Positions 53,311 through 56,265 of a DNA stretch of 64,000 nucleotides are shown here, in pieces. This DNA is from Amia ocellicauda. Its lineage: Eukaryota > Chordata > Actinopteri > Amiiformes > Amiidae. The stretch lies in contig NC_089864.1 in NCBI RefSeq assembly GCF_036373705.1, forward strand, positions 4,431,001 through 4,495,000. Reading direction: 5' to 3'. Each line of letters starts with the position of its first letter. The first letter of the stretch is position 1. Below the pieces are notes generated by a model. The model saw nothing but the letters and a program-made list of their open reading frames with translations, did no database searches and was not told where the DNA came from. The position numbers and the translations under genes were made by a program.

Positions 53311-53995
53311 CTAGAAGGGCATGGTCCCGTCATGTGATCGTCCCTTCATAAGATTGACAGATGAATAAATGGTGTCTTGAGGTTTCTCTCTTCCAGAAGG
53401 GTGGAGGTCATTGCTAAGCTCCAGACTGGCATAGTGCAGCTCCTGTGAGTCCTATAACAATAATAATGTGTGTCTGAGTGGTCAGTTATGGAGGTACCGG
53501 TGTGTACAGTCTGTGTGTGTTGGCAGTGTGTGTGAACCCTGTGTGAGTGGTACCTGTGTACCTCTGGTCCTGTGTCTTACACAGCAGTCTGATCCACAGC
53601 CACAGCCTGCCAGAGAACAGCGAAAGAGGAACACAAGACAGAGACATTACAATGAACATAACAGCTTTCACAGTATCCATCTGTTTATCTCTGTTTTAGA
53701 CATATAAAAATAGAAGAGACAATCAAATAAAGAGAGAGTTCACCTACTTTATGACCCAGACACAGAGACAGAGAGAGCTCAAGAAAGAGAGAGACAGGTG
53801 GACAGATAAATAGAGAGTGACAGAGAGAGGGACACATCATTGGATTGCTCACCGGGTCTGTACCACAGACATACACACACACAGCCCAGCACGATGGTCA
53901 GCACAGTCACACAGCTCAGCACCGTCCAGCACACGGAGAAACGCCTTCCAGAGTCTGCAGCGCAAAACACACAGACCTCAGCAACACCACCGCTA

Positions 53996-54033
<38 letters not shown>

Positions 54034-56265
54034 ATAATAATAATAATATGGGAAATCTCTGGGATCCGAGACCGCAATTGTACATGTACTACAGCAGCCT
54101 CAACTGTTGAGACTGTGACCCAGTCCAGTGGACATGGATACTAACCTGCGCCAGTCAGGCGGATTCCCTCCCCGACGCGCATCCCTCCGCTGTCTCTATC
54201 GACGCAGAAATACAGCGCCAGCTCCGCCTCGCTGACCTTCTCAATGCGCAGACTGACGAGGCCAGTCGAGCGGTCCAGTTCGGCCGTGAAGCCCTCGGTG
54301 CTGTTAGTGGTGAAAGGGTCTTTGTCGACTTTGTCTTTCAAGGTGGTGGTGAGAAGTGTGATGTTCTCGGAGCGCAGTGAGAACCAGAAGGTCTCGTAGG
54401 TCAAGGGGACCTCGCAGGGCAGACTGACGGAGTCCCCCGGACGCACTGCCCGCACCTCTGCCCAGCCACCGCGCCCGCCTGGGGGAGAGAGAGCGCCACT
54501 GCGCGCTGTTAGTAATGGTGTTCATTCCGACCCCACTGCCCTCGCTATTAATCTACATTGCAATATATTTTGTTCTAGATTTTACTTAAATTGTATAAGG
54601 ACCTATTTTGTATAGGTCCCACTGTAGTATTTTTACATGTAATACGGTTTGTGAAAAGTGTATATTTCTGTATGGCTAACTGAAGGTCACACTGCACTCT
54701 TAAATGTGTTAAATTTAACACATTATGTTTTTCAAAGACAATACAACTTTGAGTTAAAATTCACAAAAGGTCAACACAATAATACGTCTCATTAACACAA
54801 GTCTTCGTGGTAAAAACACATTGTTTTAAAATTACACATTATTGTGTTAAAACACACATTATTATGTTGTGTTTTAGTGAATTTTAACACAACATTGTTT
54901 TGTCCTTGAACTAACATTTAAAATATTAGTTGTAAGAGTGTAAAATGGTTTTCCTGCTAAATGGGACACAGATGTGCAGCAGCATCCCTGCTAAACAGTC
55001 AAGATTATCTAACACGTGTAACTTCTCATATAATGGTGGGAGCTGATAGTGGTCAGAGCCTGGGACAAGTTACCCAAAGTTGTCATTGAAGCAGACAGAC
55101 ACACACCCTATAGTATTCTTAATGAAACAGCTGTAGCCTATGCAATCCTTGGAAGTGTGATTTATTTGCTTATAGCAATGTAAAATAATCAGCTAAGTGG
55201 GTCTCCTGCAATTGTTTTCTGTGGTAGCTGTACATTCATCAACCAACGCATCTCTGAGATCAATCCATTCCATCCCTCCATTGATGTCTTTCATGAGTAA
55301 TATATTTGTTGCATACTTTGGTGATGATTAATATTTGCGATCCGAGCACAAATTAATGTGTTTCTATTTTAATGAAGATTCTGTTATTGTATGAGCATTG
55401 TGCTTGCATTAGCATACTACTACTGGTAACAAAAACATTAATACAAATTAACAAAGTAAAGGGCAATAAAACGTACAAATCTAATTAAGGACCAATGGAG
55501 AACACCAAGGTATGGAGCAGATACTGCTCAGCAACTGCTACTGCTGCAACTACAACAAGAACTATTTTATAATTAGAGGAAAGGGTGATCCCATACATTT
55601 CATAGTCGATTATGAAAACAACAACATCAACATAAATAATAAAATAAAAATGTATTCGTTTTTTTCTTTAATTATTATTGTTATTCTGAACCAAACACAC
55701 TAACCCCTTCCACAGATATTGAGACATCTTCGTACGGAGATTCTACATAAAAAAGGTTGCTTGTGATGTTTTTGGAATTAGATACCACCCCACAAAGAGG
55801 AGTCTGCAACATTAAATGTTAGATGTTTTTTTATTTTATTATTATTTTATCATTGTTATTTTCATTATTCAATTCCATGAAGTTGTAATCAATCCCAGTG
55901 CTGGATTCGACTCTCCAGGAATAGAATCGATTCCCAAATTTGAACTAAACAAAATCGATTCTGGGATGGACACCCCATCCTTAATGACCAGGAATTAGCC
56001 AATTATAAAGGCACTATCAGTCCCTGCCCTGAAATCTGTCCGATTGTTTTTCCGATTAGGCTTACAATTATTCTTACATTTGTTATTGGATTGTGTCGAC
56101 GGTGTTGAGACATAATGGCGTCTTTATTCAAGGCGCTATATAGGCTATTTGATAGACAGGTACTTTAGACCAACAGACAGACAGATTGATAGATATATAC
56201 ATAGATCCCTACTTACGAGTTAACAACAGCAAGAGGCCTGCCAGTCCGAGAGATAGGGGACTCAT
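53311..56265 (-). CDS. Single-V-domain inhibitory receptor with ITIM and ITSM-like motif
   Basis: Exons 56265-56217, 54478-54146, 53954-53853, 53606-53554 and 53442-53311 join in phases 1,1,1,0 to 222 aa. Exon 1 is a signal peptide (MSPLSLGLAGLLLLLT). Exon 2 is a V-set domain: first Cys in SVSLPCE, Trp in TFWFSL, second Cys in LALYFCV, N-glycosylation sequons NIT and NST, and a J-like end VGEGIRLT. Exon 3 is a transmembrane helix without charged residues (CWTVLSCVTVLTIVLGCVCV). Exon 4 is a Cys-rich juxtamembrane piece (GCGCGSDCC). Exon 5 has ITIM LHYASL and, 20-odd residues on, TIYSSV, which fits the ITSM pattern TxYxxV. Predicted plasma-membrane inhibitory receptor, in order ITIM-ITSM as in PD-1. 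Exon 4 needs donor CAG|GTACCA rather than the nearer AGAG|GTACAC to reach the ITIM frame. NITR-like or DICP-like by architecture; family unproven. Confidence 0.83.
53997..54047. repeat. (CTA)n/(TAA)n microsatellite
   Basis: CTA repeats followed by TAA repeats, in the intron between the V and transmembrane exons. Confidence 0.9.
54692..54935. mobile_element. Palindromic MITE
   Basis: The left half (TGTTAAATTTAACACATTAT ... AAAATTCACAAAAGG...AACACAAG) is the near reverse complement of the right half (GTGTTTTAGTGAATTTTAACACAAC...TTGTCCTTGAACTAAC). The whole unit could fold into one hairpin of about 110 bp. It lies in the first intron of the receptor gene. Same family as 36244-37356. Confidence 0.75.

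What the first reader, a model, noticed from the sequence alone, without database searches (positions are those of the whole stretch)
53311..56265. Novel-looking ITIM/ITSM receptor with one J-like V domain, linked to MHC-region genes
Seen: five phase-consistent exons encode signal peptide, V domain with both Cys, uncharged transmembrane helix, Cys-rich juxtamembrane, LHYASL (ITIM) and TIYSSV (ITSM pattern TxYxxV). The V exon ends VGEGIRLT, similar to the GxGTxL of a J segment although encoded in the same exon. Known: fish NITRs have J-like V domains and ITIMs, and DICPs map near MHC. Inferred: an inhibitory receptor that may recruit SHP phosphatases in a PD-1-like order. Its small single-domain form is unusual.
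Basis: partly seen in the sequence, partly recalled or inferred. Interest (0 to 1): 0.78.

Follow-up and report, generated by a model that had tools for sequence, protein, structure and literature searches.

The report
Bowfin MHC-linked inhibitory immune receptor gene
This is a gene for a small cell-surface receptor with an off-switch tail in the bowfin, and it is a divergent member of a cluster of related receptor genes on the fish's MHC chromosome rather than a one-off novelty.

Summary
The gene is real. Five minus-strand exons (56217-56265, 54146-54478, 53853-53954, 53554-53606, 53311-53451) join in phase into 225 aa: signal peptide, one V domain, uncharged Cys-rich transmembrane helix, LHYASL (ITIM) and TIYSSV (ITSM). 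From exon 2 on it equals NCBI's 'uncharacterized protein LOC136772086' of Amia ocellicauda (bowfin); NCBI's model has another first exon.

It is not a singleton. Its V domain has 29 matches in the 988-Mb genome, all on the window's contig at 2.02-4.49 Mb. That contig also carries 9 of 9 class II beta and 23 of 49 class I matches. The V domain scores 51-76 bits against nine relatives and at most 20 against eight mammalian G6b domains. The G6b-like layout is therefore probably convergent.

Best reading: a divergent member of a bowfin MHC-linked, NITR/DICP-like family of single-V inhibitory receptors, probably recruiting SHP phosphatases (inferred). Formal NITR or DICP membership was not settled: no NITR or DICP sequence could be compared.

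The parts
56217..56265 (-).
   Evidence: NCBI models of relatives also begin with a hydrophobic signal; not used by NCBI's model of this gene
55074..55086 (-). Alternative first coding exon implied by NCBI's protein P0001 (ATGACAACTTTGG|GTAACT)
   Evidence: the only place on the minus strand of the window that fits the implied codons
54146..54478 (-). Exon 2: V domain with both Cys (C38, C108) and J-like end VGEGIRLT in the same exon
   Evidence: C21:4485147-4485476
53853..53954 (-). Exon 3: transmembrane helix, uncharged, Cys-rich
   Evidence: the R that one search lists is at its outer edge; homologous membrane exon in relatives
53554..53606 (-). Exon 4: Cys-rich juxtamembrane GCGCGSDCC, phase 1 in and phase 0 out
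   Evidence: same phases in relative PAR4
53311..53451 (-). Exon 5: cytoplasmic tail with ITIM LHYASL (Y186) and ITSM TIYSSV (Y208), stop
   Evidence: homologous last exon in relatives

Best explanation
The gene is a divergent, most distal member of a bowfin multigene family of single-V-domain receptors spread over about 2.5 Mb of the MHC chromosome. The members examined are type I proteins: signal peptide, one V domain whose J-like strand is encoded in the same exon, a Cys-rich membrane helix and, in most, a tail with tyrosine motifs. Shown: exons, family membership, confinement to one contig, motifs. Inferred: on ligand binding or co-clustering, Src-family kinases phosphorylate Y186 and Y208, 22 residues apart, which engage the tandem SH2 domains of SHP-1/SHP-2 and dampen ITAM or antigen-receptor signalling. 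The ligand is unknown; an MHC-type or other cell-surface ligand is a guess from location and from how NITRs and KIRs behave. In kind it is an NITR/DICP-like innate immune-type receptor.
For: Exon model and identical NCBI protein from exon 2 on. Genome search: 29 of 29 V matches on C21 at 2.02-4.49 Mb, against about 0.9 expected there by length; as a contrast, none of the 150 generic V-set hits scored (of 1793 candidates) lies on C21. Phases 1-1-1-0 read directly in relative PAR4 and in agreement with its NCBI protein P0122; homologous membrane and tail exons. Tree of 26 V rows (24 different): the 10 family rows form one group (87/84; 90% of bootstrap trees), the window gene inside it next to P0124/P0125 (92/74) within a 95/95 group. 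ITIM in 7 of 10 tails. dN below dS in 6 of 6 V-exon pairs of four relatives, the window gene not included. MHC genes on the same contig. No second Ig domain in the V-to-membrane introns of 5 genes.
Against: The window gene sits on a long branch (1.61), so its place within the family is unsure, and the family's support is below the starred level. A consensus ITSM is found in it alone of 10 tails, and 3 of 10 tails lack an ITIM. No expression or phosphorylation data. First exon conflicts with NCBI's. The structure model is weak (mean pLDDT 54.9; V region blocks 64-84 apart from one at 52) and its neighbours are generic V domains.
Confidence: 0.8

Rival explanations
1. It is the ray-finned fish orthologue of MPIG6B (G6b), the platelet inhibitory receptor of the human MHC class III region, and restrains thrombocytes.
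For: Same layout: one V domain, ITIM then ITSM; the rodent ITIM LHYADL resembles LHYASL; 22 against 26 residues between the tyrosines. A valyl-tRNA synthetase gene lies about 37 kb away, and its summed tblastn score slightly favours VARS1, G6b's neighbour, over VARS2 (960 to 904).
Against: No match to the G6b family PF15096 at E<=10 for the window model or at E<=0.1 for 9 of 9 family proteins; the genome-wide PF15096 search did not complete. V domain at most 20 bits against 8 mammalian G6b V domains, compared with 51-76 bits against 9 bowfin relatives; the tree separates them. Residue by residue the synthetase looks mostly VARS2-like, by eye and against recalled human sequences. Recalled CSNK2B, LSM2, CLIC1, HSPA1A and DDAH2 gave no significant match in 264 kb.
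Confidence: 0.06
2. It is formally an NITR: the bowfin NITR repertoire, or part of it, is this MHC-linked cluster.
For: Single V with J-like end in one exon, ITIM, clustered family; PMC2442602 describes NITRs with one V domain, J or J-like motifs and ITIMs. Relatives L044 and L040 end FGTGTRLVF and VGTGTRLVY.
Against: No I domain in the 5 genes checked, though V-only NITRs exist. Zebrafish and medaka NITR clusters lie by men1/rtn3 or fgfrl1b, not reported by the MHC. No teleost protein reached E<=0.001 in the family profile search, a search that needs shared 5-residue words.
Confidence: 0.4
3. It is a DICP: the fish receptor family known, from recall, to be linked to the MHC in zebrafish and in holosteans.
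For: MHC linkage. From recall only: the abstract of Dornburg et al. 2021 reports an ancient linkage of DICPs to the MHC in holosteans.
Against: From recall, DICPs are defined by D1/D2 domains and a J-like VJ exon is an NITR hallmark. No DICP sequence could be compared. The interleaved neighbour family is another DICP candidate.
Confidence: 0.3
4. It is PD-1 or another CD28-family member.
For: One V domain plus ITIM and ITSM, as in PD-1 and CD28HL3 (PMC11599192, abstract and passages).
Against: Clear relationship to the MHC-linked bowfin family; the CD28HL3 motif YxC(x5)[IAVL]P is absent (YFCVDRDSGGM); fish PD-1 is said there to lack the canonical Cys23 and Trp41, which are present here. No CD28-family sequence was compared.
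Confidence: 0.02

Closest known systems
Bowfin 'uncharacterized protein' family LOC136771809/771912/771951/772086 and LOC136711082/096/098/100/101
   Different: The window gene's NCBI protein is only 29-37% identical to the other eight and alone has a consensus ITSM
NITR (novel immune-type receptors of fish)
   Same: V domain with J-like end, ITIM, clustered multigene family, uncharged membrane helix (definition from PMC2442602, passages and Background section)
DICP (diverse immunoglobulin domain-containing proteins of fish)
   Same: MHC linkage, inhibitory tails (DICP side recalled)
   Different: D1/D2 architecture not tested; J-like VJ exon is not, from recall, a DICP hallmark
MPIG6B (G6b) of mammals
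   Same: One V domain, ITIM then ITSM; a good model of how it might signal (PMC6742478, passages)
   Different: No PF15096 match, no specific V similarity, different neighbours
NKp30, PRARP, UrIg (non-rearranging VJ genes in MHCs)
   Same: Unsplit VJ-type exon in an MHC-linked gene (PMC10751288, passages)
   Different: UrIg is a VJ-C1 Ig-like gene; no sequence comparison was done

Membership tests
Bowfin MHC-linked single-V family | V-domain similarity above that to unrelated V domains | tested here: met
   51-76 bits against 9 relatives; at most 20 against 8 G6b and at most 19.2 against 8 bowfin C19 V domains, of which 5 gave any alignment
Bowfin MHC-linked single-V family | Exon phases and homologous membrane and tail exons | tested here: met
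   phases read in PAR4; membrane and tail exons
Bowfin MHC-linked single-V family | Location within the C21 cluster | tested here: met
   29 of 29 matches on C21, 2.02-4.49 Mb, the window gene the most distal
NITR | V domain with J or J-like end (FGXGTXLX(V/L)) | tested here: inconclusive
   Window VGEGIRLT is partial; relatives carry GNGTRLVY, VGTGTRLVY, FGTGTRLVF
NITR | Cytoplasmic ITIM without charged membrane residue | tested here: met
   LHYASL; the single R listed is at the outer edge of the helix
NITR | I domain with six Cys (absent in V-only forms) | tested here: not met
   V-to-membrane introns of 99-368 bases hold no Ig domain in 5 genes
NITR | Synteny with men1/rtn3 or fgfrl1b | not tested
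   Menin search did not complete
NITR | Grouping with teleost NITR V domains in a tree | not testable with these tools
   No NITR sequence came up by name; PDB lists show only the best 60 and were filled mostly by antibodies and T cell receptors
DICP | MHC linkage | tested here: met
DICP | D1/D2 domain type | not testable with these tools
   No DICP sequence was at hand and the papers looked up were not held
MPIG6B (G6b) | Pfam G6B family PF15096 | tested here: not met
   No match at E<=10; 0 of 9 family proteins at E<=0.1
MPIG6B (G6b) | ITIM plus ITSM on a single-V receptor | tested here: met
MPIG6B (G6b) | Class III neighbours (VARS1, CLIC1, DDAH2, LSM2; order recalled) | tested here: not met
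   None of 5 recalled markers in 264 kb; the synthetase looks VARS2-like by residues but is not clear-cut by total score
CD28HL3 (CD28 family) | YxC(x5)[IAVL]P in CDR3 | tested here: not met
   YFCVDRDSGGM; motif from PMC11599192

The most novel reading that the evidence does not exclude
The family is neither NITR nor DICP but a holostean (or bowfin-only) set of non-rearranging, unsplit VJ receptors kept on the MHC chromosome, descended from the VJ genes that the proto-MHC/antigen-receptor hypothesis places there; the window gene is a highly divergent member and, of the ten tails examined, the only one with a full ITIM/ITSM switch. The bowfin MHC chromosome would then hold dozens of germline VJ receptors, a living example of a pre-rearrangement receptor cluster.
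Probability: 0.15. Interest if true: 0.7.

Novelty: new member of a known kind. Interest (0 to 1): 0.38.

Why it matters
One gene among many does not surprise a specialist. The cluster as a whole bears on an open question: PMC10751288 (passages) argues that unsplit VJ genes in the MHC (NKp30, PRARP, UrIg) point to a proto-MHC that once housed antigen-receptor precursors. A bowfin MHC chromosome with 29 matches to this V domain, several of them in intact single-VJ ITIM genes, is a place where that idea, and the origin of NITRs and DICPs, can be tested with sequence trees and with ligand screens against bowfin class I molecules.

Tried and rejected
G6b orthology was my own first hypothesis (MHC, synthetase neighbour, same domain order). 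It failed on Pfam, V similarity, tree and neighbours, although the synthetase test itself was mixed: residues by eye favour VARS2, summed score VARS1 (960 to 904), and one segment ([16 protein letters not shown]) is VARS1-like. The idea that the + strand neighbour is a G6f-like ITAM receptor (PMC3528668, first quarter of the text and passages) was dropped: the ITAM pattern scan over 150-200 kb of the 264-kb region gave only matches that I judged by eye to be chance frames.

Structure: the model of P0001 with 8 relatives shows a V fold only; the Foldseek and VIA-align lists are mostly antibodies and T cell receptors, with shark CD8alpha among the best by Z, and do not discriminate; absence of NITR or G6b from those lists is no evidence. 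PDB sequence searches were filled mostly by antibodies.

Selection: dN is below dS in 6 of 6 V-exon pairs of four relatives; the window gene was left out of these pairs. Of the six membrane-exon pairs three (P0122, P0123, P0124) are 97-99% identical; the three with PAR3 are 74-76% identical with dN above dS (0.34-0.36 against 0.19-0.24 over 34 codons), which I do not interpret.

Literature: searches listed no title that describes bowfin NITR or DICP genes; Wcisel et al. 2017 and Dornburg et al. 2021 are not held, so I cannot say whether this family is already named in print. No RNA-seq was available.

Full report
What is there. On the minus strand, exons 56217-56265, 54146-54478, 53853-53954, 53554-53606 and 53311-53451 join with canonical AG/GT borders into a 225-aa type I membrane protein. 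It has a signal peptide, one V-set domain (Pfam 30.7 bits, cut-off 26) with Cys 38 and Cys 108, a J-like end VGEGIRLT inside the same exon, an uncharged Cys-rich helix, a Cys-rich juxtamembrane piece, and a tail with LHYASL (ITIM, Y186) and TIYSSV (ITSM, Y208). The protein database holds the same protein from exon 2 on: 'uncharacterized protein LOC136772086 [Amia ocellicauda]', 213 aa. That identifies the genome, by inference, as eyetail bowfin. NCBI's protein implies another first coding exon (minus 55086-55074) that gives no signal peptide.

It is a family. tblastn in 264 kb around the window found four further V exons, all upstream. They are followed by a membrane exon, in three of the four close to CVLSWALLGCVSAGCLLLSGCLCCLW, and by a last exon with two tyrosine motifs (for example VSYHSL...STYSVI and VIYASL...CIYSEI). 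The phases 1-1-1-0 were read directly in one of them, PAR4, and agree with its NCBI protein P0122. Because that search needs shared exact 5-residue words, it does not show that gars or teleosts lack the family. Searching the whole 988-Mb genome with the V domain gave 29 matches at E<=0.01 among 58 candidates scored, all on contig C21, 18 at 2.02-3.05 Mb and 11 at 4.09-4.49 Mb, 30-45% identical apart from itself. As a contrast, none of the 150 scored hits of the generic V-set family lies on C21 (150 of 1793 candidates were scored). The window gene is the most distal of the 29.

MHC linkage. Of 49 class I matches 23 lie on C21 (0.22-0.39, 1.15-1.30 and 3.07-3.08 Mb), and 9 of 9 class II beta matches do (0.44-0.74 Mb). 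The window at 4.43-4.50 Mb is therefore on the MHC chromosome, but about 1.4 Mb from the nearest class I match, and recalled class I and class II domain sequences gave no match in the 264 kb. [quoted passage not shown] Within the window the only MHC framework gene I can name is a valyl-tRNA synthetase at about 9.9-16.5 kb. By eye it carries mostly VARS2-type residues, although summed scores against recalled human VARS1 and VARS2 are close and slightly favour VARS1 (960 and 904).

Which known kind. The V domain scores 51-76 bits against nine family members, at most 20 against eight mammalian G6b V domains and at most 19.2 against bowfin V domains from C19. A tree of 26 V rows (24 different) groups the 10 family rows (87/84, one group in 90% of bootstrap trees), with the window gene inside though on a long branch. 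Neither the window model nor any of nine family proteins matches PF15096, the G6b family. So the resemblance to G6b-B, which PMC6742478 describes as one IgV domain with an ITIM and an ITSM docking Shp1 and Shp2 (passages), is probably convergent; it is still a good guide to mechanism. The features given for NITRs in PMC2442602 (V domain with J or J-like end, optional I domain, ITIM, gene clusters) fit, except that the J motif of the window gene is partial and there is no I domain in the five genes checked. Relatives carry fuller J motifs, up to FGTGTRLVF in L044. Zebrafish and medaka NITR clusters have other neighbours, and I could not compare NITR or DICP sequences, so I do not file it as either. 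From recall, Dornburg et al. 2021 described holostean DICPs as MHC-linked and NITR VJ exons as older than the teleost genome duplication. I saw only its title in a reference list and a sentence citing it for ray-finned-fish-specific putative natural killer receptor genes in holosteans (PMC12983459, passages). This family may well be described there.

How it probably works. Shown: a membrane receptor with ITIM and ITSM tyrosines 22 residues apart; an ITIM in 7 of 10 family tails, a consensus ITSM in this one only. Inferred: phosphorylation by Src-family kinases, tandem-SH2 docking of SHP-1/2, inhibition of a nearby activating receptor. The ligand is unknown. Family evolution: among three of the relatives (P0122, P0123, P0124) the membrane exon is 97-99% identical with dS up to 0.04 while V exons have dS 0.66-0.78 and dN 0.25-0.34; pairs with the fourth (PAR3) do not show this. 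That suggests that the membrane exon is homogenised, perhaps by gene conversion, while V domains diverge. There is no sign of overall positive selection on the V exons compared.

Verdict. Its reading as a novel, unusual receptor is not borne out: this is a divergent member of an MHC-linked family of a known kind. What lifts it above routine is the setting, a set of unsplit VJ receptors confined to the MHC chromosome of a ray-finned fish that lacks the teleost genome duplication, which bears on ideas about MHC-linked VJ genes (NKp30, PRARP, UrIg; PMC10751288, passages).

Noticed in passing
58042-61622 (+): A divergently transcribed neighbour starts 1.8 kb from this gene's start: signal peptide, V-set domain (29 bits) without the second canonical Cys, two further repeated exons without a Pfam match and a hydrophobic C-terminus. 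Relatives lie interleaved with the ITIM family in the 264-kb region (about 14.6-15.7, 40.3-42.5, 48.5-50.4 and 210 kb, with weak or partial matches near 23, 124 and 167 kb).
   Followed up: partly
C21:4338566-4393229, relatives P0124, P0123, P0122: Membrane exons are 97-99% identical while V exons are only 69-72% identical in DNA, which suggests exon-level homogenisation within the cluster.
   Followed up: partly
C21:4366300-4367017 (upstream of P0123's V exon) and upstream of P0122's V exon: A minisatellite with 43-base spacing runs up to, and resembles, the 5' part of the V exon.
   Followed up: no
17456-18462: Tandem array, 43-base unit, 23.5 copies, 98% match.
   Followed up: no
44457-46059 (-): Open frames, the first with a Trypsin_2 domain (69 bits), that look like a FAM111-type protease (name recalled).
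   Followed up: no
161-2250 (-): Two frames matching GNT-I (MGAT1-type glycosyltransferase).
   Followed up: no
26437-29402 (-), 31728-35389 (+), 43093-43830 (+): Frames that look like LINE-type reverse transcriptases (by eye) and a Tc-type transposase.
   Followed up: no
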